From positions 62,001 through 126,000 of the forward strand of contig PQAS01000042.1 of the NCBI GenBank assembly GCA_003104905.1: DNA of 64,000 bases, read 5' to 3'. The notes beneath the pieces were generated by a model. The model saw only the letters and a program-made list of their open reading frames with translations. It was not told the DNA's origin and ran no database searches. This document shows positions 14,555 through 61,659 of the stretch, piece by piece. The translations under genes were made by a program, and so were the position numbers. This stretch comes from Candidatus Methanoperedentaceae archaeon (GTDB taxonomy: Archaea; Halobacteriota; Methanosarcinia; Methanosarcinales; Methanoperedenaceae). Every line of letters starts with the position of its first letter. Position 1 is the first letter of the stretch.

Positions 14555-15622
14555 CTAATCCGACCCGGAAATTTGAAATCTGATCATACCTGCATAGAGC
14601 ACAATTGCAGAGGCCGCATACCCCCCGCAGTAAACAAGCACCTCTGCCCCGATAGAATCGGCACTGAGCCTCGTTACCAGGTTAAAAGGAGAATTCGTGA
14701 AAATATAACCTGCAAGGAACATCAATATAAGCACAAGTGAATACAAATACTGTGAAATCATCCTCTTTTTATATTTGACTGCTATCATTGCTCCAAGAAT
14801 AACAACGATGGCTGCAATTATTCCACACAAGAGCAGGATGAATCCGATGTTATAAACAATGACCCCATTTAACCTCAAAAGAAGAAGCCATAGAAATGCC
14901 TGCGCAGGGACAATAATAATAGCCGTGATCATCTTTCCGTTCACTATCTGCGAAAATGATACCGGGGAAACCAGCAGCAAATCCATGGTCTTGCGCTCAT
15001 ATTCCTCGGTCAGCATATCGATTATCAAGCCGCCGGAAATGAAAACCGGTGTAAAAACAAGAAGCGGAATAAGTATCCCATATATGAATTCAAAATAGGT
15101 GGAGGTTTTTCCAGGCATATCATCAACATAGAGTCTTATGGGTTCAAAACCAATTCTCGCTCCTCTTATATCGCGGACGTAGCTTTCATATTCCTCCAGT
15201 GGTTTTTTTAGCTGCAGTGTTACGAAGGTGCCCCTTATATCCGATTTTGGAAGATAGATTACCAGGTTGATGAGTTCATTTCCTCCCGCGTCCTCTTTCG
15301 GGATGACGACTATGGCATCGATTCTATTACTGTCAAAATCAGAACGTGCAGAGACAATGTCTGTATAATAATGCGGATTCACCTGGCTGTCTTTTATGAA
15401 TTGTACCAGTTCTCCCTGCCCAACAATTCCCACTTCTGCCCTGGGACTGTCATACTTGCTGAGAGAGGAGGGATCAAAAAAGGAAGCAAGACCTATTACG
15501 ATCATAGATGAGAAGGAAGCAATTAATAATTGAACGATAATTGCAAGCAAAAGTGTTTTTTCATTCAGGAGTGATCCTATCTCCTTTTTTACTATGACTC
15601 TTGAATTAACCAAAAACAACAC
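14555..15622 (-). CDS. ABC-2 type transporter permease
   Basis: Membrane subunit of an ABC exporter (355 residues). It has one N-terminal membrane helix, a large outside loop (about residues 50-170) and about five C-terminal helices, as in NatB-type ABC-2 permeases. The motif MLTEEYERKTMDLLLVSPVSFSQIVNGK is the typical cytoplasmic coupling segment. It begins with GTG and overlaps the preceding permease gene by 17 bases. With the divergent ATPase gene at 17403 it likely forms one export complex; the cargo is not evident. Confidence 0.88.
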   Translation of the reverse strand: MLFLVNSRVIVKKEIGSLLNEKTLLLAIIVQLLIASFSSMIVIGLASFFDPSSLSKYDSPRAEVGIVGQGELVQFIKDSQVNPHYYTDIVSARSDFDSNRIDAIVVIPKEDAGGNELINLVIYLPKSDIRGTFVTLQLKKPLEEYESYVRDIRGARIGFEPIRLYVDDMPGKTSTYFEFIYGILIPLLVFTPVFISGGLIIDMLTEEYERKTMDLLLVSPVSFSQIVNGKMITAIIIVPAQAFLWLLLLRLNGVIVYNIGFILLLCGIIAAIVVILGAMIAVKYKKRMISQYLYSLVLILMFLAGYIFTNSPFNLVTRLSADSIGAEVLVYCGGYAASAIVLYAGMIRFQISGSD

Positions 15623-34560: not shown

Positions 34561-34667
34561 CGCTCTTCCAGACGCTTTTCAAGTTCTCGTATCTTCCTGT
34601 CAAGATGCATAAGATAAAATATCAAAGCAGTCCAGAAAATCAGCAATACCATAAAGACAAGGATCAT
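34557..34667 (-). CDS. ccmD: CcmD-like small membrane protein (36 aa)
   Basis: A 36-residue protein between ccmC and ccmE: one membrane helix (LVFMVLLIFWTALIFYLMHL) followed by a charged helix (DRKIRELEKRLEER). The size, topology and gene order match CcmD, which helps release holo-CcmE from CcmC. Both ends are coupled to neighbours by ATGA overlaps (34664-34667 with ccmC, 34557-34560 with ccmE). Confidence 0.85.
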   Translation of the reverse strand: MILVFMVLLIFWTALIFYLMHLDRKIRELEKRLEER

Positions 34668-35287
34668 GACTCTACCCCCATCATCCCAAGCTTCATGTTA
34701 AACCATAGAAGATAGAAATAAAGCAAGAAAAATCCAATGGTCATAACAGCGGCGGTTGTCTTCATTACGGGCGTGAGACCGATTCCTTCCGGGTGAAGCG
34801 AATATACAAGGCGTGAAGATAAATAGGAAAGAGGTACGCTGACATATCCCACAATGCCATACACAGCACACAGTTTAGCCTTTCTGGATTCCTCATCAAT
34901 GCCACTGCGCAGCATCAGATAACCGCTGTACACGAACCACATCACCAGTGTCGCCACAACCTTCGGGTCCCAGCTCCATTTCGTACCCCATGCCAGGTAA
35001 CTGAACGCCCAGCCCGTGGCAAGCGCCAGCCCGCCAAAGATGAATCCGAGCCTGACAGCCCCGGCACTTATCATATCCCAGCGGATTTCATTCGTCCGGA
35101 GATACATTATGCCAGCCACGGCTGTCACGGTGAACGAAAAAAAAGCAAGAATAGCCGCAGGTAAATGGAAAAAGAAGATTCGGAAGCTTTCTCCCAATTC
35201 AGCATCCGGTGGCAAAGCAACAATCGCCATATACATTCCGGCGCAAATGAATGACCACATAATAAAAAAAAGCCATCTTTTTGACAT
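34664..35287 (-). CDS. ccmC: Heme transporter/lyase subunit CcmC
   Basis: Membrane protein of the heme-handling (HHP) superfamily that loads heme onto CcmE. It has six membrane helices and the tryptophan-rich WWD motif WGTKWSWDPKVV flanked by conserved His (FFFHLPAAI before, SLHPEGIG after). I start at the ATG at 35287, which begins with the first helix; an upstream TTG (35359) would add 24 residues without domain character. About 208 residues. It is the first gene of the ccmC-ccmD-ccmE group and is divergent from a response regulator gene. Confidence 0.93.
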   Translation of the reverse strand: MSKRWLFFIMWSFICAGMYMAIVALPPDAELGESFRIFFFHLPAAILAFFSFTVTAVAGIMYLRTNEIRWDMISAGAVRLGFIFGGLALATGWAFSYLAWGTKWSWDPKVVATLVMWFVYSGYLMLRSGIDEESRKAKLCAVYGIVGYVSVPLSYLSSRLVYSLHPEGIGLTPVMKTTAAVMTIGFFLLYFYLLWFNMKLGMMGVES

Positions 35288-35370
35288 ATTCGTGGTATCA
35301 TAATGATTAAGATAATAGTTAATTCTTTCGAAGAAATATCCGAATAACCAGAGTACCAATCTTTAAAAAG

Positions 35371-36457: not shown

Positions 36458-38281
36458 TTACTTTTCTGTCCACATTAACTGGATAATCCCCAGTGACAGC
36501 AATATAATCCCGAGCCAGAAGATGTTGAGGAGTGGATATATGTTCACCTGCACAGGTATGACAGGCGGTGAATCCTTTAAAAGTTCAAGTCCCTGAAATG
36601 TGATGAAAATATCAGCAAATGGTCTTCTTAGAATCCCGCTTATTGCATAATCCCCGGTTTTATCACGGATGAAGCTCATTGTCTTTTCGCCCAGATTTTG
36701 CTCTTTTTCGTGTACTTCAAGCGTTAAGTTCTGAACCCAGTTCCCCCTATCGTTCTGGTGAACATGGATTTTAAGGAGCTTTATTTCATAATTACCTATT
36801 GACTTTGTCTTCCCGATATCATCAACTGCGAAAACCGTGGAATATTCGCTGCTGAAAGATGTTGCATATACGCCTCCAAACAAAAGAAGCAATGCACCGA
36901 TATGGATAAAGGATACTCCCTTTGGCTGTGTGCTTATCCTGTAAAATACCGCAAAAAGCGCAAAAACCACAGGAGGTATCAGGGATAAGATGGAGAGCGA
37001 TGCGTATGCTTTTGTAAGAGTTGATGACTGCAAAAAGAAATCTGATGAAGAAGAAGCCAGTGAGTAATTATCAGATGGTTTGTAGAATGCCAGGGCAATT
37101 GTCAAAACGACTGCAACAGCGCCTGGTAATTTGCCATTTTTCCTGAGCATGCAGACCCCCATCAGTATCAAAAGCAAGAGGACGAATGGATAGGTCGTCA
37201 GATTATAGAACTCCGGTCCCACAGATGCCTCATTACCGGATATTTTCGTAAACAACGGTATGGAAAGCCCGATAAAAACTATCGCCGCAAGAAGCACTAA
37301 TACGGCAAAGGTAATTGCATTGACAGATATTTCCATCCTGAGCCTGTTTCTGTAAATTAAATAAATAGTTCCCAGTACAAGAATTAAAATGGCAGCACCA
37401 AGCACAGTGCTGACTGAGGTTTCAGTGAACTCATGAACCGATCCCCATAAGCCGCTTCTGATAATGAAAGTAGCAAACAGGGTGGAAATAAAAGCTGTCA
37501 CAAAGAGCAAAGCTTTGAAGCTTTGATGTTTTTTCAGGTGAAGTCCTCCTGTCAAAAGGAGCCAGGGTATTAACGAGCCGGCCTCAGAGGCATCCCATGT
37601 CCAGATTCCCCACCCTGCTTCGTATGTCCAGATCCCCCCCACAAGACCGATGCCAATTGAGAAGAAGAGCCAGGAAACTTGAGCCCACCTCTGTGCAAAT
37701 ATCTCCAGATCCTTATTCGATAATAAGTGTGATACACCGGCAGCGAATGGCAGGGTCAGGGCGGCATAAGCCACGAATGTGATTGGCGGATGGATGACAA
37801 TCCATGGGCTCAATAGTTCAGGATCAATACCCGTTCCATTGGTAATATCCGCACCTGGGAACACGAGTTTGAATGGCTCTGAAACAAGCGTTAACAGGAA
37901 CAGGAAAACCACAACAAACTCTGATATGAGAAGTGTCGCATATTGAGTTTTTTTTCCCATAAACCAGAGAACGGAAATGCTGCTCAGCCATGTCCAGAAT
38001 ATAAATGTGCCCTGCTGTCCTGCCAGTACTGCTCCTATTTTATATAGCACAGGCATATCCTGACTGGAATAAAGCCAGACATAATACACCGAAAAATTAT
38101 CGGAAATAAAATAGAATATCATCAATGAAAAAGCAAGAGTTAAGAGAACGAATCCTGCCTTAAAAGCCAGGATATGAAGAGATTTTAGATTATCATTGTC
38201 CTTTACATTAATAATAAAGCATAGAACAAGGGCCGCGCAGAATGCAGCAAAACCGGCATAAAGTAAAATTTCGCCTGACAT
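36458..38281 (-). CDS. ccmF: Cytochrome c heme lyase subunit CcmF
   Basis: A 607-residue heme lyase component with about 14 membrane helices. The WWD domain is present (GGIWTYEAGWGIWTWDASEA, near residues 212-231), with conserved His in VIHPPITF and in VHEFTETS. The C-terminal outside domain contains GNYEIKLLKIHVHQNDRGNW. CcmF transfers heme from CcmE to the apocytochrome. This is one of two CcmF paralogues in the window (the other at 49867). It is divergent from the radical SAM gene, sharing a 37-base gap. Confidence 0.93.
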   Translation of the reverse strand: MSGEILLYAGFAAFCAALVLCFIINVKDNDNLKSLHILAFKAGFVLLTLAFSLMIFYFISDNFSVYYVWLYSSQDMPVLYKIGAVLAGQQGTFIFWTWLSSISVLWFMGKKTQYATLLISEFVVVFLFLLTLVSEPFKLVFPGADITNGTGIDPELLSPWIVIHPPITFVAYAALTLPFAAGVSHLLSNKDLEIFAQRWAQVSWLFFSIGIGLVGGIWTYEAGWGIWTWDASEAGSLIPWLLLTGGLHLKKHQSFKALLFVTAFISTLFATFIIRSGLWGSVHEFTETSVSTVLGAAILILVLGTIYLIYRNRLRMEISVNAITFAVLVLLAAIVFIGLSIPLFTKISGNEASVGPEFYNLTTYPFVLLLLILMGVCMLRKNGKLPGAVAVVLTIALAFYKPSDNYSLASSSSDFFLQSSTLTKAYASLSILSLIPPVVFALFAVFYRISTQPKGVSFIHIGALLLLFGGVYATSFSSEYSTVFAVDDIGKTKSIGNYEIKLLKIHVHQNDRGNWVQNLTLEVHEKEQNLGEKTMSFIRDKTGDYAISGILRRPFADIFITFQGLELLKDSPPVIPVQVNIYPLLNIFWLGIILLSLGIIQLMWTEK

Positions 38282-39205: not shown

Positions 39206-39697
39206 TCATCGGCTTTCGACTTTATGCAGGCTTGCTATATCCTGTATATGGCAGGTATCACAGGGATGTCCTCTTGCCACATGTATTGTGATCAGGTTTC
39301 CGAAACTTGGTGAAAGTGCATCCGGATAACCGTGGCAGGAATCGCAGACTATCGTATGCCCGGGCAGTTTGCCAGGTATTTTTCCATTATCAATGTGGCA
39401 GGTCATGCAATCCGGTCCATTTTCTTTATTGTGCAGATCATGCACCTGCAAACCATGACATGCAGAACAGTAGTTCCCACCATTTATATGTTTGAAAAGT
39501 GTTTCAGGGTTTTTATGGCAGATCCTGCAATCTATTGCCTGTTCAGGTATAACTTCAAATTCCGGTATCTTTACTTCCTGGCTGGCGCTTTTATTCAAGG
39601 GTGTGAAAGCGTCTGTTGTCTGTGCAATATATACTATGCTCACAATGAGAAGGGCCCAGGTTGCTAACATTGCCAGGAAATAATTTCTATCATCCAT
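39206..39697 (-). CDS. Membrane-anchored five-heme cytochrome c
   Basis: From the ATG at 39697 this is a 163-residue protein with an N-terminal membrane helix (about residues 6-25) and five CxxCH heme-binding motifs: CRICH, CSACH, CMTCH, CDSCH and CDTCH. It resembles NapC/NrfH-like or small membrane multiheme electron carriers, placed on the outer face of the cytoplasmic membrane. It is divergent from the giant cytochrome gene and could pass electrons from menaquinone to it. A longer start at 39754 would place 19 extra residues before the helix. Confidence 0.88.
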   Translation of the reverse strand: MDDRNYFLAMLATWALLIVSIVYIAQTTDAFTPLNKSASQEVKIPEFEVIPEQAIDCRICHKNPETLFKHINGGNYCSACHGLQVHDLHNKENGPDCMTCHIDNGKIPGKLPGHTIVCDSCHGYPDALSPSFGNLITIHVARGHPCDTCHIQDIASLHKVESR

Positions 39698-39829
39698 TGT
39701 ACACCAATAATATAAATAATCATAATGATTAGTACAAGATATAAACTTAGCCATCGGGTGTGATATTATTCCGACCTTGAATTCAAACGCATGTTTAATA
39801 TGTCATAATACTGATTATAAGGATTAAAG

Positions 39830-42800
39830 ATGAATCCCGCAGCACCCACTCCACATACCGGACGCCCTGGCCTGGATTTTTCTATTTTTACTGCCTGCGC
39901 ACATTCTATAGTGATGTTTATAATGTTGAGCGGCGTGGCAGGAGCGGCAACATATAATGCAGCCAGCGGGATCGGAAATATTAATTCTAACAATAGCAGT
40001 TATTGGAGCACTGTACTTAGCAATAACGACAGTATTGTTGCCACCAACATCAATATCATAAACGGTTCATTGAATCTGATTAACGCAACCATCAGGATGT
40101 ATAATGGTTATTATATTTATGTCAAAAGCAATGCAACCATGAATATAACTAATGGCTCAACCATCACGCATTATTACGGCTATTACTATTTCATCTACCA
40201 GGAGGGAAGCTATGGCTATCTGAGCAATAGCACTATCGAGTATAGTACTAAATTGCAGATTGATACCAAAAACAACCTGGCAATAAACAACGTGACTATC
40301 CGTAACAATGCCTATTATGGCATTCATCTTACTCCTTCTTCGGGAAATGTTAACATCACTAACAGCAGCATCACAAATAGCGCGACCGGGACCGACACAT
40401 ACAGCATCTACATCCAATCATCCGGGAATAATACCCTGCGCAATAATAACATAAATGGTACTGTACGCAATCTATATGTGGAAGGGAATTTTGGCAACGA
40501 CATAGATACCAGCAATCTGGTAAACGGGGGCAGGGTTTACTATAGTTACAACAGCAGTGATGTTTCTATAGCCGGGGATAATATCGGGCATATCACACTA
40601 TATAATTCTTCCAATGTATCCATATATAATAACGCACTTGTCGCAAACGGCGATGGGATTCGTTTGATCAATTCAATTAATAATGTCACTATCGAAAAAA
40701 ACACCCTGTACAATAGCAATTATTACGGCATCGATCTCACATCAAGCCGGGCCAATATCACCAATAACACCATAGTAACCAGCGATTTGACTGCGATCTC
40801 GCTGTCAGGTTATGATAACAGCAGCATAACAAATAACACGGTATCCGGAGGGAGTACAGCTTCAGGGATCAGGCTTTCCGGTTCCAATGGCAACAAATTG
40901 ATCAATAATACGGTTACAGGAACAGGTTCCGGCAATGATGGAATTGAGCTTTCAACTTCTAATAATAACAAATTAACAGGTAACATCTTAACATACAGTG
41001 GCGGTAATAATGGAATCAAGCTTAGCTCTTCCGGTTATAACAATTTGACAAACAATACAATAAAAAGCAAATCCATGGAAGGAGTGAATTTGATCGGCAG
41101 CAGCAGCTACAACACGATTATTTATAATGACATCATATCCAATTCCGGCGCTGGCATTGCAATATCTTCTTCTTCCAACACTATTTTAGACAACACTATC
41201 TTATCCAATTCCGGTGATGGCGTAACTGTTTTCTCCAGCACTAATAATTCAGTCAGTAACAATAACATCTCATTAAATTCACAAAATGGAATTAAGGCAG
41301 GTTCTTCAGGAAACCGTTTCTCCAATAACATATTGGCCGAAAATGTTGATAACGGCATCTATATACAGATTGATGATAACACATTTTCCAATAACACCAT
41401 AACCAGGGGTGCAGGTTATGGATTATATATCGATTTTGGACAATATGATAATTATATTTATCAAAATAATACGGTAAACGGTGAAAAAATATATTATTAT
41501 TTTAATAGTAATAATATTCAAACAGTTGCAGTCGAACCCCTGACGGTATCAAAAGTAAGCAATGTCGGCAAGATCAGTTTGATAAAAAGTTCAAATATGA
41601 ATATAAAAAATAATATTCTTTCAAATAATAAATATATCGATGGAGGCGTGCCTTCAGGAATTTTCCTCTACAATTCCACAGGCAATACCATTTCAAACAA
41701 TACCATCACAAATAACTATCGCGGGATATACCTATACAATTCTTCAAGTAACAGGATCAATAATTCGAACAGCATAAACACAAGCGAAGAATACGGAATA
41801 TATTTTAATATTTCAAATCATAACAATATTACAAATAGCATTATTGGATTAAATGCTATCACCGGAATATATTTCAATTTTTCAAATTACAATAATATAA
41901 CAGGCAACGACATCAAAGGAAGTCCTGAAGGCATATTGCTTGATACATCGTTGAACAACAGTCTATTTATCAATAGTATTTCCAATTATACTTTTTCAGC
42001 AATTCGTTTAATAGAATATTCCCTGAACAATACAATGATCGGTAATACCCGCTCAAACAGAAACAGCGCGCAATTCGATATCTATATCAATGATTCCATT
42101 AACAATATCGTCGCAGCCAACCAGAGTACAGCAGCTAATTACACATTCTATTTGACTGGCGATACCAGAGTGGCAACACTTGATACCGTATTCAATAAGA
42201 CAAAAGCAGGTTATGAGGATACTTCGGACCTCACATTGATGTGGCGGATAGACGTACTTTCATGGGACAAAAAACACATAGAACCAATATGGGGAAATCT
42301 AACTGTCAGATACGGCGATTATAGCGATGTCGGAGGAATACTGCTCTGGGACGGCGAGGTCGTAAATGCCAATGGAAGATTGAGTCATAATTCGCTGGAT
42401 TACTGGGGTCCTCCCGATTCCGGCGATAACTGGCTGGTGGTCATCGAATACAGGCAAAATGCAACCGGCAAGATCAATTATCAATCCACTCCTATGAATG
42501 CCACTGTAATCAACAGGTGGGATAGACTTCAAAACATTAATAAATCATATCGAAATATCACACAAACCATCGAGGGCCCCGGGATCACAATTATTGTAGA
42601 CGCGGGTTATACCCCGAATGGAAAATGTTACTACTGCCACAGGAATAAACTCACTTACAGAACTATGGTGCATTGGACTGATTATTCTGAAAGCCTGACA
42701 GATATGTCAAATCCATATACTCCCGGGCGGTGTATCGACTGCCATGATAAGAACGATTCTGCGAATGTACCCCATGGCACTGGCAGCGGAAAGGATATGC

Positions 42801-45800
42801 TGGTCAAGCAAAGTCCCCAGTTGTGTTACAATGGCAACGGCAACCAGACATGCCACAATTCAAGCGCAGTGAGGGTGACACTCGATCAGAAAGCACAGTT
42901 CAACCAGACAACCCATCACGAACTTGGGGAAGGAAAAATGTCATGTTTTTCCTGTCATGATAATCATGGCACAGAGAATCGCTTTGATCTTCACAGACCG
43001 TATTCAAATTCTAATTATTATACCTACAATTCAAATGATTATAGCCTCTGTTTTGTATGTCATCTTGAAGAGAAGCTCAAGGCAAATATATATTCGACCG
43101 GATACCTTGCCGGCTTCAGGAATCAAACAAACTTCAGGGATGAGTATTTTGGATACCCGTATGGATTCAATGGAAGCTATGAAAATTTACATAGCGGCCC
43201 CCATATGGGGTATTCATGTTACTATTGCCACAGTCCGCACGGGTCCGATAGTCCGGCAATGACAAAAGGCCTGAGCTGGACTTATATTACAAATATTACG
43301 CCGCCCGGCACTCTATATCCTTACGGCGACTGGGCTAATCAAATGGGATTGGACCAGGCTAACTGGTCAAATTTCACATTGAACCAGGCTGCCGGTCTGG
43401 GTCCAGGAACAAAATGCGGGTACCATTCCGGTAGTTTCAGACTTCCATCAACATTTGTATATCGGGAATTTGTAGACTATGAATCCGCAGGCGGTCCGAA
43501 TTGCGTGGGATGTCATGACAGCAGTAATCCTGATGCCATCCGAAAAATCCTGAACGTATCTGCACTCAAACTCGCCATGCATACCAACCTGAGCTGGAAT
43601 TTCCGCAATGGCGGAGAACTTCAGGGAACAGGCAAAAACTGGACACAGTGGGGTGTGGAACGCGGCTATAATGCCTCGAATATTTCCACAGATAATGCGA
43701 TTTGCTGGTCATGTCACAGTTCTGACGGCCTGCCCCCATATCCCGGATATCATCCGGATAGAACACTGGCTCCTTATCAATGTCCTAAATGTCACGGGCC
43801 TATTAGCGGGCAGCCACGGCATACAGAGGGACTTGTTGTAGCGATCGACAACCATGGTCCCACTACTAAAGGTGCAGGCTCGGTGTACATCCAGACCAAC
43901 GCAGGAACAAATGGTTCATGCGAAAACTGTCATGCTCCCAGTAAACTGCCGGATTCGTTGATAGGTGCACTTACAGTCTGGAAAAATGGCGCTGTTGTAT
44001 CCTTCACAGGCAGGACAACCGCAGGCGATGTTTCACACTATGGATTGAGCAGATCGCAGGGGGAAAGCCTGGGTATTTCAAACCCGCTGATCAATACCTC
44101 CAATTGTTTATTCTGCCACACAGACTCGGCAAAAGGCGCTATCTGGGGCAATGCCGTGAATATAAGCGGGAATATGTATGGGGCAGACACTGCCAATGTT
44201 TCACAGTGTTACACTTACTGTCATGTGCTTCCGGATTATGTTGGTATTCTCAATGAAAAAAACATTGCGAATTTTCACAATAAATCCGTATACTCAGGCG
44301 GCGGTCCGAATTGTGTTACCTGTCATGATGTGAACGGCATATACCACGTCCAATCTCTGGTCAATGCAACTTCGATCGCACAGGGTTTACATGGGAATAT
44401 GGGTAACAACACCATAGAACTGATCCCTGATATTGATCCGAGATCGAAATCATGCTGGGGCTGCCATCAGACTGACGGTACTGAGCCGGAAAATATGGGA
44501 GATCGCAACGGAATTACGGATCCGGGTAAAAGACCCTGGAAATGCGAGGATTGCCACACCAGAAGCAGCGAATGGGTCGCAGCTACCGGTGACGGGGAAA
44601 CATGGCTGGCAGCCAGTTACCCTCCAAATAAACTGCCGCCACAGGTGTATGCACACTACCAAAACTCTTCAACTGTGAAAACCAATGTAAATGGCAGATG
44701 TGTTGACTGCCATAACAACAGCATTGACCCATATAGTAATGATACAACAGGAAAGGTATTGGGAAATACGATATTTTCGAATGTGTCTCATTATGGTTTG
44801 AACAAATCAAGGGGATCGGCACTGGGTCTTATGAGTCCGCTTTTTGATACCATTTACTGCGGCATTTGCCACAATTCATCCGCAAATGCAACCAGATGGG
44901 GAAATGCCACTCAAAATGATCACGGCAATTTTGCCAACTATTCTGCAGAGGATAGATGCTATGCCTGCCATTCAACTGATAATCAAACACCTCCGGACTT
45001 CCATGCAGTAACTTTAATGCCCGCACAAGGGGGAGTCGATTGTTTGAGGTGCCATAACAATCCGGGATTCTCAAAAAACAGGCGTATCAACGGCAGTATA
45101 TTTTCAGAAGCAATCCACAGGGGTCTAAACAATGCATCAACAATGGAGTACGGTCTTAACCGAACCTGCTGGACATGTCACTTTGAAAATGGCCGCAATG
45201 CCAGCAATCATTCCATGCTAAAGGTTCCGCCATATCTGTGTCCTGATTGCCATAACAAGATAGGAGGCTCATTCATCAATGTGAGTAATGCTCCCAACAT
45301 CTATAATCACTTCAGGAATGGGACCACCATCCTGGCATATTTGACACGAATAGCAGACACGGACTCATGCATGGGCTGCCATAACAAATCAGAGATGTTT
45401 ACTTTCTATCTGCCGGATGAAAATGAGACAAATCCATATTATACGAACTACTCAATCACATCACATTACGGGAGCAATCGAACCGATCTCGTCGATAAAT
45501 ACAATGAAAGCAACTCAACCGAATACTGCTCATACTGCCATCGTAATAATTCGACTATCTTCGTTGAATACGAGAATAATAAAAATATCCGGCATTTGAT
45601 TACGTCTAACTGCAGCAGCCCTGAGTGCCATGGACCCGGGCGGCTGCATAATGAATCATTGGTAAGACCACATACCGGCGGCAACTGCACCGATTGTCAT
45701 CTGGAAGGCGGAATAAACGCAAGCGGCGGCATACCTTTTATAAATAAAACCGGATTTATGGCAGGATTTCACAGCAACATAACAGGGGATTTACGCGAAG

Positions 45801-48800
45801 ATAATTATTCCAGAACGAGCCGCGTATGCTGGGGCTGCCATAACAATTATTCAGAGCAGCTCATTAATGCGACGCATACTGAACCTGTTTCAAACCTTCC
45901 AAAATGTGAAGGGTGTCATGACAGCCCAATGCCTTATAACAGTGAATATCTGAAGACACCGCCGATGCAGGTCAAAGAACATAAGCCGGATGGCGAGGAT
46001 ATACGGACAAATGCAAGTCTTACCAGTTGTGAAATTTGCCATAACATATCTCTTGCCATACTTCCTCCCTCTGCTAATGTAAAGTATCGGGAACCGAAAA
46101 ATTACATATCCCATTATGGCAGGCAAAGAACGGATATGCTTACGGGGAAGAATTTAACTGACTGTGATTACTGCCACAAGAACCAGAGCGGCGAATATAT
46201 CGCCATGTTCCAGAATATTGAAAAAGCAAATGTAACGCATAATGGGAATACGGAATGTGATGTCTGCCATGGGATAGGAAGAATCCATGATCGTAACCTG
46301 TCACAGCCAAAAATGACGGGAGGCAATAATTCACTCTGCTTAATCTGTCATGATCTTCCGGAGAAATCAGGTGGAAAAGTTGTTCAACATTCAGAGTTCA
46401 GTATCAGTGTCCATGCTAATATTGATTGTACCGACTGCCATACACCCAGGCAAAAATTCAAAGGCATAATAGTAAATGGTGAATCAATCTCAAGGATATT
46501 CAATGTCCCTTCAAACATAAGATGGATGAATGCTACGCCGGAAGATAGCAGTATTATTGACCTGATGCTAATATCTCCAGATGGAAAGAACTATACCGGC
46601 AAAAATATCAGCATTATCTCGCCTCTTCCGGGCAACTGGACAAGTATCGTTAGCGGAGGGGACTCATCATATTTCATAACATTGAATTTTACCCTGAATC
46701 ATCCCGGCAGCACACCGAAAATATGTGCCGACTGCCACATAGATGGTTTTGGGGATGCTGTTAAGGTTTACAGGCATATTTCCAACCAGAGCATTGTTCC
46801 AACCGACACTTCCTGTGTAGTATGTCACTCTAAAGACGCACCATACGCACGGACGGAAGCCATGAAGGCTTCCCACTATGCGCCTTTGAGTCCACCTCTT
46901 GATTCAGGAGACTGTATCCGCTGTCATTATAGAGTTGTGTCAGGTTTTGGCAATCCGCCTGATCCAAGAAACCACACACGATATGCAGATATAAATGTGA
47001 CACTGACAACAGGTGAGGCATACAAACTTGTTGATAATTATTCGATTGCATTAATAGAAACAACACAGGATGCAGGAATATTTACCATTGAAAAGGATGG
47101 ACAGCTCCTTTCGCGTGAAATTGTGGCAAAAGGAAATGACTTTATATATGAAGTCACAGGCATCGAACCTGAAAAAACCCGGATCATTAACCTTACCGTA
47201 AACAAATTATTCTCATCCCGGAAGGGATATGCAGCGCAGCTATCCGGGACTGCTCTTGCATCTCGTATCCACAGGGAAACAGAGAACGATTCATGCTATG
47301 CATGCCATGATAAAGAATATCGAACGAACATGCCGGAAGGCATGGATTACTATGTGATAAAGAAAGAAATTGAAAATGTCACACTTGCACGGATGCCCGT
47401 AAATTTCTCGGAAAACAAGACGATAATGCTTGGTATAGGCCAGAGGTGGGACGCCGGAGAAGGCTTTTATCTTGATGTCCAGGATGTGAGCACACAGAGA
47501 GGAAACGCAAAGCTCCGCTTATACAGGAACGGTACCCTCATAGAAGATGCACTTGTCAATGAGGGAAGCAATTTTACTCATGAAGAGCAGGTTCTTGACA
47601 GGAAGATAACAGTCTTCACTATAAAGCTTGACAGCATATTCATCGGCCAAAAAGCCGTTGTGGTCTTAAGTCATGCAAGACTCATTGCGGGTGAGCTGTT
47701 CGAATTAAATTCCACGATACAAGTGACAGGCACTCCTGCAAAATACCTGCGGCTTGACAGTATGTTATCTGTGGGGAAAAAGCCGGAAAATTTCCATGTA
47801 AATACCATTACGCCGGGCGAGTACAATCCGGATTGCATAAGTTGTCATACAGGTGAAGGAATAGCGCCATACAAGCTCGATCTTGAGTCCTTTAAGACGG
47901 GGGTTCATGCCGGTTTGAACAAGAACGTCACCCATACCGCTTTTCTAAGTGACAATGTGAGTAAAGCCTGCTGGGTATGCCACGGGAATGGAAGCGAACC
48001 TGATGAGCATCTTGCGGACAACATGGGTAACTGGACGCCAAAGATCTGCGTTGAATGTCATGTGAACCCGGTATTTGGGGTAAAGCAGGTTTATTCTCAT
48101 TATCCCGGAGCGGCTGTATCAACAAGAGCCACATGTATTGACTGCCATTCAAATACTTTATCAAACACATCAAACAGTTTGTCAAACACATCATACACTT
48201 TATCAAATAATGTTCCGATTAAAACACCTGCTGCGGGAGTATCACATTATTCGAACAGGAAAGGACTGCCTGTTACTTCAAGTTGCGATGTATGTCATAA
48301 TAATTCTACCAGCATTTGGGGAAGCCCTCCACAGGTAAGAGAACACAATCCTAATAATAATTGTCTTCCTTGCCATGGAAATGTCTCTATGTTCCATGAT
48401 TTGGGGATAACCGTAGTGAGGAACTGCCAGGATTGCCATCAAAATAGGGAAAAGGCCCGGGATTTCAACCTTTCGATCATAAACACTCATTATCCGGGAG
48501 CTCCGGACGGAAAAGCAAATACCCTGGAGAAAAATAACTATACCTGCCGGGTTTGCCATAATGCCACCAATAATTCAATGCACTCTTACCTTGAGGTGAG
48601 AAAATACGATAATGAGACTTTTGGCTACTGCTTCCAGTGCCACAGCGGTGAGGGGAAATTCCCTTATAAGCCGCAGGTACAGATTATGGCGCTCAAGCAT
48701 GGTTCAGGAGAAAAAGTCATATCCGGATGCGAAACCTGCCACTCTTCACAGGGAATAAGCAAATTCCATACCCCGACTCTCATTAGCAAGTCATATTTTT

Positions 48801-49870
48801 CAGATACCGGCAACTATAAAATTGAATGTACATCATGTCATTTAAAACATGAAGAAAGAGAATATCAGCCATTTGCGAATATCCAGTGCACTGACTGCCA
48901 TACGGAATATGGCGCGAACCATTATGCTAATGCCAGGCTCCGGGATGTTAACCAGAGCGAAGCCTGCAAGATCTGCCATAATAAAGATGCAGAAGTATTC
49001 CACAATCTTACTCATCGAGAGGCTAATATCACGGAGGGTGCTTACGAACCATGCAGGGCCTGCCATGCTGAAGTGGAGTCCATTAGAGGAGAACACAACA
49101 GATCAGACACCATTTTGAAAGGTACGATGCTGTATGTTTCAGGAAATAAGACAGGCGGTTCCAATATAACCTGCACTTCCTGCCACAACGCCACAGGAAG
49201 CAGCCAGTTCCATTATGACGACTATCCGCTGGGGGCCGTTCAAAATCCCGGGTGGCAGAACTGGAGCGCCGGCAATGTTACAGGCTGTAAGGATTGTCAT
49301 ACCTATTTTGGCGGTGAGCCTCCCTTTAACGCGACGAACATGGGAACACAGGGCCGCTCTCCAGCCGGTACAGCGCATGGTTATGCCCCAAACTGCACGT
49401 TATGCCATGGCGGTTCTGATCCCGTACGTTTCCACAGCCTCGCAGCCACCGAATTCATCCCGCGAACCGGCATCATGCTGATCCCTGAGAATGTAAACAG
49501 AGGGGATGAGAGTCTTTTACAGGTACAGGTCGTACTTCCTCCGCTAATGAAAGTTACCAGGGCAGAATATTTCATTGATGAACTCGGCAGGCAAGGATAC
49601 GGATTGCAGCTCAGTTATATACGGGGCGAGTCCGGTGGAACCTCGGTTCTTCTGGGGGCTAATATAGACACTAAAGAACTATCTGATGGAAAGCATCTTA
49701 TTTTTGTACGCGTGAAAGATTCAGCAGGGAAATGGAGCAAGCCCGACATAGCGGTTCTGACAGTAATAAAACCATGGATCATTGAGGCCGCCCAGACGTA
49801 TTTTATATATGTAATACCTGTAATTATGATTTTTGCGATTTTCATCCTGGTGTGGAGGCGGTTTAGATGA
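39830..49870 (+). CDS. Giant multiheme cytochrome c (about 50 hemes) with N-terminal beta-helix and C-terminal anchor
   Basis: A 3346-residue surface protein. A hydrophobic export signal (about residues 25-41) is followed by a long right-handed beta-helix (about 45-820) of NosD/PbH1 repeats (patterns such as NNTITNNYRGIYLYNSS) and a linker domain. From residue 932 to about 3188 I count 50 canonical CxxCH motifs by eye, plus a few variants. Within the heme region are two or three beta domains (about 2200-2290, 2385-2480, 2520-2640), the latter resembling archaeal S-layer repeats. An Ig-like domain (about 3210-3315) and one membrane helix ending RRFR close it. Many N-x-S/T sites suggest glycosylation. 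Probably an electron conduit across the S-layer. AAGGAT ribosome site before the ATG. Confidence 0.95.
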   Translation: MNPAAPTPHTGRPGLDFSIFTACAHSIVMFIMLSGVAGAATYNAASGIGNINSNNSSYWSTVLSNNDSIVATNINIINGSLNLINATIRMYNGYYIYVKSNATMNITNGSTITHYYGYYYFIYQEGSYGYLSNSTIEYSTKLQIDTKNNLAINNVTIRNNAYYGIHLTPSSGNVNITNSSITNSATGTDTYSIYIQSSGNNTLRNNNINGTVRNLYVEGNFGNDIDTSNLVNGGRVYYSYNSSDVSIAGDNIGHITLYNSSNVSIYNNALVANGDGIRLINSINNVTIEKNTLYNSNYYGIDLTSSRANITNNTIVTSDLTAISLSGYDNSSITNNTVSGGSTASGIRLSGSNGNKLINNTVTGTGSGNDGIELSTSNNNKLTGNILTYSGGNNGIKLSSSGYNNLTNNTIKSKSMEGVNLIGSSSYNTIIYNDIISNSGAGIAISSSSNTILDNTILSNSGDGVTVFSSTNNSVSNNNISLNSQNGIKAGSSGNRFSNNILAENVDNGIYIQIDDNTFSNNTITRGAGYGLYIDFGQYDNYIYQNNTVNGEKIYYYFNSNNIQTVAVEPLTVSKVSNVGKISLIKSSNMNIKNNILSNNKYIDGGVPSGIFLYNSTGNTISNNTITNNYRGIYLYNSSSNRINNSNSINTSEEYGIYFNISNHNNITNSIIGLNAITGIYFNFSNYNNITGNDIKGSPEGILLDTSLNNSLFINSISNYTFSAIRLIEYSLNNTMIGNTRSNRNSAQFDIYINDSINNIVAANQSTAANYTFYLTGDTRVATLDTVFNKTKAGYEDTSDLTLMWRIDVLSWDKKHIEPIWGNLTVRYGDYSDVGGILLWDGEVVNANGRLSHNSLDYWGPPDSGDNWLVVIEYRQNATGKINYQSTPMNATVINRWDRLQNINKSYRNITQTIEGPGITIIVDAGYTPNGKCYYCHRNKLTYRTMVHWTDYSESLTDMSNPYTPGRCIDCHDKNDSANVPHGTGSGKDMLVKQSPQLCYNGNGNQTCHNSSAVRVTLDQKAQFNQTTHHELGEGKMSCFSCHDNHGTENRFDLHRPYSNSNYYTYNSNDYSLCFVCHLEEKLKANIYSTGYLAGFRNQTNFRDEYFGYPYGFNGSYENLHSGPHMGYSCYYCHSPHGSDSPAMTKGLSWTYITNITPPGTLYPYGDWANQMGLDQANWSNFTLNQAAGLGPGTKCGYHSGSFRLPSTFVYREFVDYESAGGPNCVGCHDSSNPDAIRKILNVSALKLAMHTNLSWNFRNGGELQGTGKNWTQWGVERGYNASNISTDNAICWSCHSSDGLPPYPGYHPDRTLAPYQCPKCHGPISGQPRHTEGLVVAIDNHGPTTKGAGSVYIQTNAGTNGSCENCHAPSKLPDSLIGALTVWKNGAVVSFTGRTTAGDVSHYGLSRSQGESLGISNPLINTSNCLFCHTDSAKGAIWGNAVNISGNMYGADTANVSQCYTYCHVLPDYVGILNEKNIANFHNKSVYSGGGPNCVTCHDVNGIYHVQSLVNATSIAQGLHGNMGNNTIELIPDIDPRSKSCWGCHQTDGTEPENMGDRNGITDPGKRPWKCEDCHTRSSEWVAATGDGETWLAASYPPNKLPPQVYAHYQNSSTVKTNVNGRCVDCHNNSIDPYSNDTTGKVLGNTIFSNVSHYGLNKSRGSALGLMSPLFDTIYCGICHNSSANATRWGNATQNDHGNFANYSAEDRCYACHSTDNQTPPDFHAVTLMPAQGGVDCLRCHNNPGFSKNRRINGSIFSEAIHRGLNNASTMEYGLNRTCWTCHFENGRNASNHSMLKVPPYLCPDCHNKIGGSFINVSNAPNIYNHFRNGTTILAYLTRIADTDSCMGCHNKSEMFTFYLPDENETNPYYTNYSITSHYGSNRTDLVDKYNESNSTEYCSYCHRNNSTIFVEYENNKNIRHLITSNCSSPECHGPGRLHNESLVRPHTGGNCTDCHLEGGINASGGIPFINKTGFMAGFHSNITGDLREDNYSRTSRVCWGCHNNYSEQLINATHTEPVSNLPKCEGCHDSPMPYNSEYLKTPPMQVKEHKPDGEDIRTNASLTSCEICHNISLAILPPSANVKYREPKNYISHYGRQRTDMLTGKNLTDCDYCHKNQSGEYIAMFQNIEKANVTHNGNTECDVCHGIGRIHDRNLSQPKMTGGNNSLCLICHDLPEKSGGKVVQHSEFSISVHANIDCTDCHTPRQKFKGIIVNGESISRIFNVPSNIRWMNATPEDSSIIDLMLISPDGKNYTGKNISIISPLPGNWTSIVSGGDSSYFITLNFTLNHPGSTPKICADCHIDGFGDAVKVYRHISNQSIVPTDTSCVVCHSKDAPYARTEAMKASHYAPLSPPLDSGDCIRCHYRVVSGFGNPPDPRNHTRYADINVTLTTGEAYKLVDNYSIALIETTQDAGIFTIEKDGQLLSREIVAKGNDFIYEVTGIEPEKTRIINLTVNKLFSSRKGYAAQLSGTALASRIHRETENDSCYACHDKEYRTNMPEGMDYYVIKKEIENVTLARMPVNFSENKTIMLGIGQRWDAGEGFYLDVQDVSTQRGNAKLRLYRNGTLIEDALVNEGSNFTHEEQVLDRKITVFTIKLDSIFIGQKAVVVLSHARLIAGELFELNSTIQVTGTPAKYLRLDSMLSVGKKPENFHVNTITPGEYNPDCISCHTGEGIAPYKLDLESFKTGVHAGLNKNVTHTAFLSDNVSKACWVCHGNGSEPDEHLADNMGNWTPKICVECHVNPVFGVKQVYSHYPGAAVSTRATCIDCHSNTLSNTSNSLSNTSYTLSNNVPIKTPAAGVSHYSNRKGLPVTSSCDVCHNNSTSIWGSPPQVREHNPNNNCLPCHGNVSMFHDLGITVVRNCQDCHQNREKARDFNLSIINTHYPGAPDGKANTLEKNNYTCRVCHNATNNSMHSYLEVRKYDNETFGYCFQCHSGEGKFPYKPQVQIMALKHGSGEKVISGCETCHSSQGISKFHTPTLISKSYFSDTGNYKIECTSCHLKHEEREYQPFANIQCTDCHTEYGANHYANARLRDVNQSEACKICHNKDAEVFHNLTHREANITEGAYEPCRACHAEVESIRGEHNRSDTILKGTMLYVSGNKTGGSNITCTSCHNATGSSQFHYDDYPLGAVQNPGWQNWSAGNVTGCKDCHTYFGGEPPFNATNMGTQGRSPAGTAHGYAPNCTLCHGGSDPVRFHSLAATEFIPRTGIMLIPENVNRGDESLLQVQVVLPPLMKVTRAEYFIDELGRQGYGLQLSYIRGESGGTSVLLGANIDTKELSDGKHLIFVRVKDSAGKWSKPDIAVLTVIKPWIIEAAQTYFIYVIPVIMIFAIFILVWRRFR
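48157..48207 (+). repeat. 21-base tandem repeat inside the giant cytochrome gene
   Basis: Two copies of TTT(A/G)TCAAACACATCA(A/T)ACA(G/C) and part of a third code for the heptads LSNTSNS, LSNTSYT and LSNN. It makes a Ser/Asn/Thr linker between heme motifs and may vary in copy number. Confidence 0.8.
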
Positions 49871-51822
49871 ATGCAGGGAATTTACTTGTTTACGCCTCTT
49901 TACTGTGTGTTTTATTCGGGGCAATTTACTTATTCAAAGGCAAAGTAAAAACCGGAAAATTGTTCACGAGATTAGCTGCGGTTGCCTCTACGATTTCTGT
50001 TATCCGGTTAAGTTTTGCCTTCATTTCCCTGGATTTTGATTTTTTTTACGTATGGCAGTATGCAAGTAAGGATATGTCAATTTTCGACAGGGTTTCAGCG
50101 ATGTTCGCAGGACAGGAGGGTACATTTCTTATATGGGCATGGCTTTCGATTGTAACTGTATTCTTTTTTATGGAACTTTACTGGATGCCGGACCGGACAG
50201 GTTTGCTGACTATGGGATATTCTCTTTCAGGCTGCGCCTTTGTGCTGATATTGACTGTTATTATGACACCATTCAATTTGATATCAAGCGTACAGGGTTC
50301 TTCCTTACCATCAATGGGAAATGGTATTAATCCTGCGCTTCTTGATTTCTTAATGCCCGTCCATATCTTTACGGTTTTTCTTGCATATGCTTTTGCTCTT
50401 GTCCCCGCTGCGGCATCGCTTTCATATCTTTCTATATTAAGAAGCGGGAAGCTTCAACCGGAGATGCCCGACATTAAGAATTACCTGCGTCTTTCCTGGG
50501 TTTTTTTAAGCATCGGGATGATTTCAGGCGGATTATGGGCGAACAGGCTGCTCGGGTGGACAGGTTTCTGGCAATGGGATCCAATTCAATCAACAATAAT
50601 GGCGGCATGGCTTTTATTGACAGCAGCGCTCCATGCAATAATTCGATCAAAAAGTGGTGAATACAGGATTTTATTCCCCTTTCTATGCATCGGTACATTC
50701 CTCAGTGCCATATATACAACGCTTGTCGCAAGAAGCGGCATTTTCAGTTCTATACACAGTTTCCCTACAACTCCAACGGCCTGGATACTTGAACTTTTTA
50801 TACTGATTATATCTTTATTTTCATTGATTCTTGCAAGAGGATATAATGAACCGGAAGAAAGGAAGACGAATATTAGGTCTGGCTTTTCACCACATAATAC
50901 ATTCTATTTCACTATTTTAATATTGATTGTTATGTCATTAATATCCCTCTGGGGACCCACACTCGAAATAATCCTCTCTTTTATTGATTATAAGATAGTG
51001 TTATCAACTGAATTTTACAATGTGTTATTCTATCCGCTCATAATTGTTCTTTCTTTTCTTACAGGTATTTGCATACTATATGGAAAAGTGAAAGATAAAA
51101 CGCTGGCTTATGCAGCTCTCATTTACTTTATTTTGAGCATTGCAGTCAGCATCGCTGTACCAGGCAACTCTTATTCAGTTGTGCCTCAGGGCAATATCAA
51201 TGTTAATTTTTTTGAAAGGATAATGGGTTCTGTCTCTATTATGTCTTATCTGCCGGCATTTTTCTTTGTCACCGCCAGCATCATATGGAAAGCTGCCAAA
51301 GACCTGGGATTAAAAAGCATGATGGCAGTGTTGCATCTTACAGGTGTAAACATGATCCACATAGGCTTCATTTTCGTGGTTATGGGCGCTGTAATTAGCA
51401 GTTCATTTTCAACCACTCATATTTTTACATACTCACTTGATGAAAAAGGCGTATATAAAGAAAATGGGGGTGTAGGCATCCGATTACTGGATTACAGGGT
51501 TGAAAAGAACGGTAACGATTGGGACCAGGTTGTGGATATAGAGCTCAATTATGACACGAAAAGCAATGTAAGCGCTTTTTCCAGAAAGAGCAGCAAATTC
51601 GGAATTGTAGCCAATCCTGCTGTAAGATATGGATTATTTTCGGATGTGATTGTAGAACTTCAGAATTCTATTCCGCATCAGATCCAGAGCCAGATGATAG
51701 AATTAAAAGTCAAAAAACAGCCGTTAATCAGTATATTGTGGGGAGGATGCATATTGCTGTTAGCAGGGGTGGTTTTCACCCTCTCATCGGATTATATGCG
51801 AAGGAAAACATGGAATCGCTGA
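49867..51822 (+). CDS. ccmF: Second CcmF-type heme lyase subunit
   Basis: A 651-residue CcmF/CycK paralogue with about 14 membrane helices. The WWD motif is LLGWTGFWQWDPIQSTIM; conserved features include AMFAGQEGTFLIWAWL, MPVHIFTVF and SIHSFPTTP. Its ATG overlaps the stop of the giant cytochrome gene (ATGA, 49867-49870), so the two are made together. Sequence differs clearly from the CcmF at 36458, suggesting that it may be specialised for this cytochrome. It converges with the next leftward gene. Confidence 0.92.
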   Translation: MNAGNLLVYASLLCVLFGAIYLFKGKVKTGKLFTRLAAVASTISVIRLSFAFISLDFDFFYVWQYASKDMSIFDRVSAMFAGQEGTFLIWAWLSIVTVFFFMELYWMPDRTGLLTMGYSLSGCAFVLILTVIMTPFNLISSVQGSSLPSMGNGINPALLDFLMPVHIFTVFLAYAFALVPAAASLSYLSILRSGKLQPEMPDIKNYLRLSWVFLSIGMISGGLWANRLLGWTGFWQWDPIQSTIMAAWLLLTAALHAIIRSKSGEYRILFPFLCIGTFLSAIYTTLVARSGIFSSIHSFPTTPTAWILELFILIISLFSLILARGYNEPEERKTNIRSGFSPHNTFYFTILILIVMSLISLWGPTLEIILSFIDYKIVLSTEFYNVLFYPLIIVLSFLTGICILYGKVKDKTLAYAALIYFILSIAVSIAVPGNSYSVVPQGNINVNFFERIMGSVSIMSYLPAFFFVTASIIWKAAKDLGLKSMMAVLHLTGVNMIHIGFIFVVMGAVISSSFSTTHIFTYSLDEKGVYKENGGVGIRLLDYRVEKNGNDWDQVVDIELNYDTKSNVSAFSRKSSKFGIVANPAVRYGLFSDVIVELQNSIPHQIQSQMIELKVKKQPLISILWGGCILLLAGVVFTLSSDYMRRKTWNR

Positions 51823-59163: not shown

Positions 59164-59565
59164 CTATTCAACTATTATTTTTCCCTTTGGCATCTTTGGA
59201 TGTAATGAACATTTATATTCAAAGATACCCGTTTTATTGAAAGTGTATTTCCATGAATCTCTTTTATTAAGAAGTGGGGACTGAACACCATCAACGTTCA
59301 CGATATACGAAGTGCTGTCCATATTCGTCCATTTTACGGTCGTCCCATTCACAATTTTCCATTCAGGCGGATTGAACATGGTCCCTTTGATTTCAACATA
59401 AACAGTCGTTGGTTCAGGAACGGAAAATCCTTTAGTGGGAGCAACTGTGGGTATCTGTACAACCTGTTGCTGGTTCCCGATATCAGTGCCTTGATCGGTA
59501 TTCTCGCCAGTACAACCCGAAATTAAAACGACCAGTATGAAACAAAGCATCCATCGATTATTCAT
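59164..59565 (-). CDS. Cupredoxin (plastocyanin-like) lipoprotein with altered copper site
   Basis: A 133-residue lipoprotein: lipobox LISGC with Cys18, a Thr/Pro/Gln-rich linker (about 20-52) and a cupredoxin domain. The C-terminal ligand loop is intact (YKCSLHPKMPKGKI: Cys119, His122, Met125). The position of the first ligand, normally a His in N-x-D-x3-H, is Tyr87 (NMDSTSYIVNV). The site may therefore bind copper weakly or differently. It overlaps the mqnA-like gene by eight bases and could be an electron carrier for the quinone or cytochrome system. Confidence 0.85.
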   Translation of the reverse strand: MNNRWMLCFILVVLISGCTGENTDQGTDIGNQQQVVQIPTVAPTKGFSVPEPTTVYVEIKGTMFNPPEWKIVNGTTVKWTNMDSTSYIVNVDGVQSPLLNKRDSWKYTFNKTGIFEYKCSLHPKMPKGKIIVE

Positions 59566-60531: not shown

Positions 60532-61659
60532 ATGAAAATAGGAAAAGTTAATAAATCAATAGTAGTAGGATTGGTGATATTGCTGTCATTCGGTATGGGA
60601 TTGGGCAGCGCCGGCACCCTTAACTCTTTAAAGGTTACGGAAGCGCCAATAATTGATGGCACTCCGGAGGCAATATGGGACCAGGCAACTGCCATGACAA
60701 TCAATGTAGCAGGCGGGGCAAATACGGGAGCGCATACAATAACCATGAAAAGCGTTTATACCGATGATTCCGTGTATTTCCTTGCGTCCTGGAATGACCC
60801 AACAGAAAGCCTGAGGCGTGAGCCCTGGGTCAAACAGTCCAATGGAACATGGAAGCAGCTCAAAGACCCTGATGACAAGGGCGGGGACAACAACAAGTTC
60901 TATGAAGACAAGTTCGCCCAGATATGGAATATAAACACACCGGGATTCGATAACTCCGGATGTTTTGCTGTATGCCATGCCGGAGAGGCTCCTAAGCCCT
61001 ATGGGAATAAATACACAGCAAATGCGGGCGAGATGGCAGATATCTGGCATGCAAAACTGGTGAGAACAAATCCTTCAGGTTATTTAGACGACCAATACCT
61101 GGACTCTACAAGATACAATATGACAACTGCGGTTGATGCCGGGAGGAAGAGCGATCCGGGGCTTGTTCCATACTATACGAACATTAATAGTGCCATGACC
61201 GCCCCGAATTATACTTCGGCGGACCAGCCAGCACCGCCCTACTGGATCATTGATGCTGAAAAACTGCCATTCAATGATACATACAAAGCCAATGACGAGA
61301 TAGCAGCTATCGTTGCAAGGCCCCCGACAGGGGACAGGGCTGATATAATGGGCAAAGCTGTCTATAAGGACGGTAAATGGATGCTGGAATACGGCAGAAA
61401 ACTGGATACGGGAAGCCAGTATGATGTCCAGTTCTCTGACTTGAAGAAGGAATATTCCTTCGGGACTTCTGTCTTTGATAATGCGCAGGTAAGACATAGC
61501 TATGAAACAGGTGTTAGTAAACTGGTTTTCGCAGCGGCACCTGCAGCCACAACAACAGTAGTCATGACATCCGTACCTGCTGCCACAAAGGCACCTGCAT
61601 TCGAAGTATTCTTTGCGGTTTTTGCTTTGTTGGTTGCAGTACTGGTTAGAAGAAGGTAG
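60532..61659 (+). CDS. Secreted ethylbenzene-dehydrogenase-gamma-like heme protein with archaeosortase-type tail
   Basis: A 375-residue exported protein: an N-terminal signal (about residues 8-28) is followed by a domain resembling the heme b subunit of type II DMSO-reductase enzymes (EB_dh; VTEAPIIDGTPEAIWDQA, SVYTDDSVYFLASWNDPTES). A heme c-like CFAVCH motif (Cys144, Cys148, His149), a CX3CH spacing, is present. After a Thr/Ala-rich linker the C-terminus PAFEVFFAVFALLVAVLVRRR has the shape of a PGF-CTERM sorting signal. No catalytic molybdenum subunit is adjacent. It is preceded by a strong ribosome site and closed by a hairpin terminator, so it is probably an abundant stand-alone redox protein. 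Confidence 0.8.
   Translation: MKIGKVNKSIVVGLVILLSFGMGLGSAGTLNSLKVTEAPIIDGTPEAIWDQATAMTINVAGGANTGAHTITMKSVYTDDSVYFLASWNDPTESLRREPWVKQSNGTWKQLKDPDDKGGDNNKFYEDKFAQIWNINTPGFDNSGCFAVCHAGEAPKPYGNKYTANAGEMADIWHAKLVRTNPSGYLDDQYLDSTRYNMTTAVDAGRKSDPGLVPYYTNINSAMTAPNYTSADQPAPPYWIIDAEKLPFNDTYKANDEIAAIVARPPTGDRADIMGKAVYKDGKWMLEYGRKLDTGSQYDVQFSDLKKEYSFGTSVFDNAQVRHSYETGVSKLVFAAAPAATTTVVMTSVPAATKAPAFEVFFAVFALLVAVLVRRR

What the first reader, a model, noticed from the sequence alone, without database searches (positions are those of the whole stretch)
39830..49870. A 3346-residue protein that joins a NosD-type beta-helix to about 50 c-type hemes
Large multiheme cytochromes with S-layer-like domains are known in ANME archaea, but here the first ~800 residues are a beta-helix of PbH1 repeats, often found in surface carbohydrate-binding or copper-insertion proteins, followed by about 50 CxxCH motifs spread over 2250 residues. 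The size and domain order suggest a cell-surface conduit able to span the S-layer and contact a mineral, a partner or another cell.
Basis: partly seen in the sequence, partly recalled or inferred. Interest (0 to 1): 0.85.

Follow-up and report, generated by a model that had tools for sequence, protein, structure and literature searches.

The report
Beta-helix-tipped S-layer cytochrome of a methanotroph
The gene encodes one giant archaeal surface protein in which a membrane-anchored, heme-packed conduit through the cell's protein coat (known as ANME MHC-B) has been joined to a beta-helix-tipped outer cytochrome (known as ANME MHC-C); a hybrid of this kind is published from one other archaeal lineage, so this is a second, apparently independent example that hints the two proteins work together.

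Summary
Window 39830-49870 (+) is one open frame of 3346 aa with 50 CxxCH motifs (0.27 expected) behind a right-handed beta-helix.

The C-terminal half carries an S-layer (DUF1608) domain pair with one heme in its linker, and a C-terminal membrane anchor. A specialised CcmF overlaps the stop codon by 4 bp. Those are hallmarks of ANME MHC-B. Residues 1-1949 are a relative of ANME MHC-C (the pectin-lyase-type one). The crossover is sharp, at residue ~1949/1950.

The same architecture is in two ANME-3 MAGs, including HMMV2, whose hybrid MHC is in the literature (Chadwick 2022). There the crossover lies ~200 residues away and the tail belongs to the ANME-3 lineage. So the class is catalogued; this is a new member, probably an independent fusion, in the genus of Ca. 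Methanoperedens. It is the only one of 31 genomes of that genus with an MHC-C head.

Assembly chimerism is unlikely: MHC-C and MHC-B genes share at most 16 identical bases. Most likely function: a conduit from cytoplasmic membrane through the S-layer to an outer beta-helix tip touching a partner, polymer or mineral. Function is inferred, not shown.

The parts
39830..39949 (+). N-terminal export signal, residues 1-40 (hydrophobic stretch ending ..SGVAGAA)
   Evidence: read from the translation; the MHC-C relatives begin alike; cleavage site not predicted by a program
39950..42049 (+). right-handed beta-helix (pectin-lyase-like) head, residues ~41-740
   Evidence: Pfam Beta_helix and NosD; predicted solenoid matching beta-helix structures
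42050..42619 (+). conserved heme-free linker domain, residues ~741-930, diagnostic of MHC-C heads
   Evidence: alignment; found in 18 of 186 genomes of the order
42620..45676 (+). MHC-C-type heme region, residues 931-1949: 21 CxxCH plus CX8CH, CX3CH, CX4CH
   Evidence: motif count, 44-65% identity to MHC-C proteins and ANME-3 hybrids, wider motifs
45647..45682 (+). crossover between MHC-C-like and MHC-B-like sequence, residues ~1940-1951
   Evidence: block identities and alignment; single-copy DNA in the genome; no exact repeat over 16 bp
45677..46951 (+). MHC-B-type heme region outside the S-layer domain, residues 1950-2374, 11 CxxCH
   Evidence: alignment with MHC-B tails, counts
46952..47809 (+). 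S-layer (DUF1608) domain pair, residues ~2375-2660
   Evidence: PF07752 60.9 bits on the fragment; 3u2g by profile and by fold
47294..47308 (+). single heme motif CYACH (residue 2489) in the linker between the two S-layer halves
   Evidence: cysteines and histidine invariant in 11 aligned tails and in A3
47810..49429 (+). MHC-B-type heme region on the membrane side, residues 2661-3200, 17 CxxCH
   Evidence: counts; alignment
49430..49867 (+). C-terminal beta-rich stretch and membrane anchor (..YFIYVIPVIMIFAIFILVWRRFR), residues 3201-3346
   Evidence: translation; conserved in MHC-B tails; beta-rich character is inferred from sequence
49867..51822 (+). CcmF-type heme lyase of the CcmF2 kind, overlapping the cytochrome's stop by 4 bp (ATGA)
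   Evidence: Pfam/NCBIfam; 44-55% identity to CcmF genes next to MHC-B in relatives
39206..39754 (-). small membrane-type cytochrome with 5 CxxCH, divergently next to the giant gene (association inferred)
36458..38281 (-). second, distinct CcmF
   Evidence: Pfam; not close to the CcmF2 group, 29-32%
34664..35359 (-). CcmC-type cytochrome c assembly protein
   Evidence: PF01578, 94.9 bits
34183..34560 (-). CcmE-type heme chaperone
   Evidence: PF03100, 58.9 bits

Best explanation
It is a membrane-anchored extracellular-electron-transfer conduit made by joining an ANME MHC-C head to an ANME MHC-B tail. Shown from sequence: export signal, C-terminal anchor, S-layer domain pair with a heme motif between its halves, 17 heme motifs on the membrane side, 11 + 21 (plus up to 3 unusual ones) on the other side, a beta-helix at the far end, and its own CcmF next door. 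[quoted passage not shown] In most relatives the same path would need two proteins, MHC-B in the S-layer and unanchored MHC-C outside it; the fusion makes that contact permanent. The adjoining CcmF probably loads heme onto this very long chain.
For: Head and first heme region align end to end with separate MHC-C proteins, tail with separate MHC-B proteins. S-layer domain by Pfam, profile and fold. CcmF2-type gene overlapping by 4 bp, as beside MHC-B in relatives. Same whole architecture in two ANME-3 MAGs. MHC-C and MHC-B genes are neighbours in G040, G044, G054 and G042. S-layer cytochromes are proposed S-layer conduits in ANME (PMC9012536), and 113- and 52-heme S-layer cytochromes are highly expressed in Ca. 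M. manganireducens during Mn reduction (PMC7082337).
Against: No expression, localisation or electrochemical data for this gene. Heme attachment and heme-to-heme distances are unknown; segments of 100-180 residues with at most one heme motif (2362-2489, 2489-2669) could interrupt conduction unless folded compactly. The substrate of the beta-helix is unknown. Distal placement of the head follows from topology, not from data.
Confidence: 0.72

Rival explanations
1. Assembly chimera: separate MHC-C and MHC-B genes of one or two organisms were joined in the metagenome assembly.
For: The two families meet at a sharp point, head and tail have different phylogenetic neighbours, no other genome of the genus has this head, and no reads were available.
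Against: Longest exact stretch shared by MHC-C and MHC-B genes is 14-16 bp in five genomes and 16 bp between head and tail here; junction DNA is single-copy in the genome; frame is kept through the join; the same fusion type occurs in two other assemblies.
Confidence: 0.04
2. Single ancient fusion: the window protein and the ANME-3 hybrids descend from one fused gene, and one of the tails was later replaced by recombination with a resident MHC-B.
For: The window head is sister to the two ANME-3 hybrid heads with full support.
Against: Crossovers lie ~200 residues apart in MHC-C coordinates; tails go to different clades. This rival concerns origin, not function.
Confidence: 0.35
3. The outer part is mainly an adhesin or electron store: the beta-helix fixes the cell to a surface and the hemes hold charge, with conduction carried by other cytochromes of the genome.
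For: Beta-helix relatives include tailspikes and polysaccharide enzymes; the genome has many other multiheme cytochromes, including another S-layer/cytochrome frame of 1202 aa on contig C53.
Against: The conserved heme in the S-layer linker and hemes on both sides of the S-layer domain fit a continuous path better than storage on one side.
Confidence: 0.17
4. NosD-like copper handling by the beta-helix, fused to a cytochrome.
For: Pfam and NCBIfam NosD hits; NosD among the fold matches.
Against: The NosD subfamily model scores 39 bits against a cut-off of 300; residues 201-800 hold at most 0.5% His and no Cys; no nos genes were recognised in the part of the window examined.
Confidence: 0.02

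Closest known systems
ANME-3 HMMV2 hybrid MHC (Chadwick et al. 2022, PMC9012536 Fig 11; here L069, 3132 aa, 45 CxxCH) and its near twin in CSMAG_2493 (L067)
   Same: Beta-helix, linker, MHC-C hemes, MHC-B hemes, S-layer pair, anchor, CcmF2 with 4-bp overlap
   Different: Crossover ~200 residues earlier, tail from the ANME-3 MHC-B clade, 45 instead of 50 CxxCH. That L069 is the protein drawn in Fig 11 is inferred from the genome accession, not checked against the figure
ANME MHC-C (e.g. GB37 L043, Argoarchaeum L045)
   Same: Residues 1-~2209 align, 42-57% identity, same beta-helix and linker
   Different: MHC-C as published has no S-layer domain and no C-terminal anchor; this protein has both
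ANME MHC-B (e.g. Argoarchaeum L045, HR1 L050)
   Same: Residues 1940-3346 align, 47-53% identity, S-layer pair with linker heme, anchor, CcmF2 next door
   Different: The ~740-residue M6/MAM-like N-terminal head is absent, replaced by the MHC-C head
MHC/S-layer proteins of Methanoperedens with 52 CxxCH (G008 5442 aa, G012 3441 aa; compare PMC7082337)
   Same: Same genus, same S-layer tail and CcmF2
   Different: Heads are MG2/Ig-like with CIA30/CBM-like stretches, no beta-helix
ANME-2c ERB4 86-heme MHC (PMC9012536)
   Same: S-layer domain and pectin-lyase-like domain in one chain
   Different: 86 hemes; sequence not available here, so kinship was not tested
NosD
   Same: Beta-helix fold class
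   Different: Far below the curated cut-off

Membership tests
ANME MHC-C | Large N-terminal pectin-lyase-type beta-helix followed by many CxxCH | tested here: met
ANME MHC-C | No S-layer domain and no C-terminal transmembrane helix | tested here: not met
   S-layer pair present; anchor read from the C-terminus
ANME MHC-B | S-layer domain with a single heme motif in its linker | tested here: met
ANME MHC-B | C-terminal membrane anchor | tested here: met
   hydrophobic C-terminus aligned with MHC-B; no TM program was available
ANME MHC-B | CcmF2 gene next door | tested here: met
   CcmF2 identity by similarity, no CcmF tree built
ANME MHC-B | Heme-free N-terminal M6-like head | tested here: not met
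   homology to MHC-B begins only at residue ~1950
MHC-C/MHC-B hybrid (ANME-3 HMMV2 type) | MHC-C head and MHC-B S-layer tail in one chain | tested here: met
MHC-C/MHC-B hybrid (ANME-3 HMMV2 type) | Same crossover (single origin) | tested here: not met
   trees
NosD copper-insertion protein | Score above the curated subfamily cut-off | tested here: not met
   39.4 bits against 300
S-layer electron conduit (function) | Located in the S-layer and conducting electrons across it | not testable with these tools
   needs localisation and electrochemistry

The most novel reading that the evidence does not exclude
The MHC-B tail with its CcmF2 is a conserved conduit chassis on which the outward head is repeatedly exchanged (M6/MAM-like, MG2/Ig-like, or beta-helix with MHC-C hemes) by recombination between heme-motif repeats and across lineages, so that the head sets the partner or acceptor; MHC-C is then the natural docking partner of MHC-B where the two are separate proteins. 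Two fusions with different crossovers serve as Rosetta-stone evidence for that partnership.
Probability: 0.45. Interest if true: 0.6.

Novelty: new member of a known kind. Interest (0 to 1): 0.42.

Why it matters
How electrons leave ANME-type archaea across the S-layer is open, and so is which of their giant cytochromes act together. A second joining of MHC-C to MHC-B, in the genus of Ca. Methanoperedens and with a different crossover, suggests that the two normally form one path. It also gives a defined order of modules (membrane-side hemes, S-layer heme, outer hemes, beta-helix tip) that can be tested by cross-linking, cryo-tomography or binding assays of the isolated head.

Tried and rejected
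Mis-assembly at 42600 (the head-heme join there is conserved in 17 other genomes) and at the true join 45676. NosD-like copper role. A viral or extrachromosomal carrier: a scan of viral contigs with the tail profile gave no relative. The whole-protein Pfam scan did not list the S-layer domain; it appeared when the fragment was scanned, so its absence in the first scan was not taken as absence. Bacterial-type promoter and terminator scans were no better than shuffles and do not suit archaea. Paper searches for beta-helix or NosD with multiheme cytochromes found nothing; 'pectin lyase' is the word used in the field. No annotated record of the HMMV2 contig was available. The AlphaFold model of the head is of low confidence beyond about residue 700, so nothing is claimed about the linker fold.

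Full report
Observation. The frame 39830-49870 (+) is one ORF of 3346 aa with an ATG start and an AAGGAT a few bases before it. It has 50 CxxCH between residues 933 and 3193; shuffles of that stretch give 0.27 on average. Three further cysteine pairs form CX8CH (999), CX3CH (1460) and CX4CH (1928). The CX3CH (CYTYCH, CYDYCH in one) occurs in all nine MHC-C-type relatives compared, and a CX8CH or CX9CH likewise at the first site; the CX4CH stands where most of them have CxxCH. Up to 53 hemes are therefore possible. One site near residue 1196, CxxCH in several relatives, reads KCGYH here.

Domains. Residues ~41-740 are a right-handed beta-helix (Pfam Beta_helix and NosD). The predicted model shows regular solenoid strands, pLDDT mostly 70-90 over most of that stretch, and low confidence behind; Foldseek finds alginate lyases/epimerases, phage tailspikes and NosD. 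Residues ~741-930 form a conserved heme-free linker. Residues ~2375-2660 are the two-part S-layer domain of Methanosarcinales (DUF1608): Pfam S-layer 60.9 bits on the isolated fragment, the MA0829 structure 3u2g by profile at E 6e-4, and 3u2g/3u2h as the only two Foldseek matches at E <= 0.001 (the TM-score is low, probably because the two halves of the model are loosely joined). The single heme motif in the linker between the halves, CYACH at 2489, keeps its cysteines and histidine in all aligned relatives, as described for ANME S-layer cytochromes (PMC9012536). The chain ends in a hydrophobic stretch followed by WRRFR. Heme motifs from the membrane outward: 17, then 1 in the S-layer, 11, 21 (+3), then the beta-helix.

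Relatives. With residues 760-3346 as query, 56 of 80 related genomes match. The best matches are two different kinds of protein. Residues 1 to ~2209 match separate proteins of 2100-2570 aa that begin with the same beta-helix (ANME MHC-C). Residues 1940-3346 match separate proteins of ~2150 aa followed directly by a CcmF (ANME MHC-B with CcmF2). From the latter order one in-frame deletion would give exactly this kind of fusion (inference).

Crossover. In 10-residue blocks the identity to MHC-C holds to about residue 1949 and then falls, while identity to MHC-B begins at 1950 with GGNCTDCHLEGG. The DNA there is single-copy in the genome. Head and tail share no exact stretch longer than 16 bp, nor do MHC-C and MHC-B genes within five other genomes. 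A graph-assembly chimera is therefore unlikely. Read data were not available.

Same architecture elsewhere. A scan of named genomes brought in ANME-3 HMMV2 (L069, DQIO01000275, 3132 aa, 45 CxxCH) and CSMAG_2493 (L067, 3130 aa): beta-helix, MHC-C hemes, MHC-B hemes, S-layer (PF07752 53.5 bits in L069) and a CcmF with 4-bp overlap. HMMV2 is the genome whose hybrid MHC is described in Chadwick et al. 2022; [quoted passage not shown] In HMMV2 the switch lies near its residue 1760, equivalent to ~1745 here, about 200 residues before the one in the window. Trees: the window's MHC-C part is sister to the two ANME-3 hybrids (100/100); the tail falls with the same-genus G012 and G008 and the GoM-Arc1 lineage (100/99), on a long branch, while the ANME-3 hybrid tails fall with a plain ANME-3 MHC-B (100/100). 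Head and tail have different histories: two fusions, or one followed by tail replacement.

Distribution. The MHC-C linker is in 18 of 186 genomes of the order, and in only this one of 31 genomes of its genus. Both modules lie in one frame in three genomes: this one, G184 and G179, the last two matching the ANME-3 hybrids in length. Close MHC-B S-layer modules in the genus are in this genome, G008 and G012 only; the last two carry MG2/Ig and CIA30/CBM-like heads on 5442- and 3441-aa frames with 52 CxxCH. Ca. M. manganireducens is reported to express a 52-heme S-layer MHC strongly during Mn reduction (PMC7082337). The G008 record (VEPN01, isolate MnB_21) may hold that protein; this was not checked.

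Mechanism and limits. Shown here: the parts, their order, their kinship, the maturation gene, the crossover. Inferred: heme occupancy, orientation with the beta-helix outermost, electron flow, and what the tip touches. Novelty is limited because the hybrid class is published. What is added is a second lineage, a different crossover, and the conflict between head and tail trees, which together make a modular-head reading testable.

Noticed in passing
L116 (G000:C11:1-16000), ORFs 3864-14940 on the - strand: Five tandem multiheme genes (12-15 CxxCH each); four of them share a near-identical C-terminal stretch (CWTCHY.KDM..., HGMTTCKTCHAPS...GPLG), and three carry stretches related to the M6/MAM-like head of MHC-B. 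The MHC-B-type head thus exists in this genome on other cytochromes.
   Followed up: partly
L041 with L040/L073 (G008:C86): A 5442-aa frame: about 2900 residues of MG2, Ig-like and carboxypeptidase-regulatory-like domains before 52 CxxCH, an S-layer domain and CcmF2.
   Followed up: partly
L042 and L043 (G036:C1:972000-1006000): A cluster of further giant cytochromes (3320 aa with 40 CxxCH and a 4056-aa frame) near the MHC-C gene of a GoM-Arc1 genome; the 3320-aa one is a distant beta-helix relative.
   Followed up: no
G000:C53:165898-168705: A 1202-aa frame with both S-layer and cytochrome c7 matches: a second, smaller S-layer cytochrome of this genome.
   Followed up: no
window 60532-61659 and 59164-59565: An ethylbenzene-dehydrogenase-type heme b domain protein (PF09459, 132 bits) with a C-terminal hydrophobic tail, near a small cupredoxin-like lipoprotein-type gene.
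   Followed up: no
[quoted passage not shown] the HMMV2 protein read here has it the other way round, beta-helix first and S-layer with anchor last. Either the wording is swapped or another protein is meant.
   Followed up: partly
L075-L081: In ANME-2c-type genomes the MHC-B counterpart is split into two overlapping frames just after the S-layer domain, followed by a more distant CcmF.
   Followed up: no
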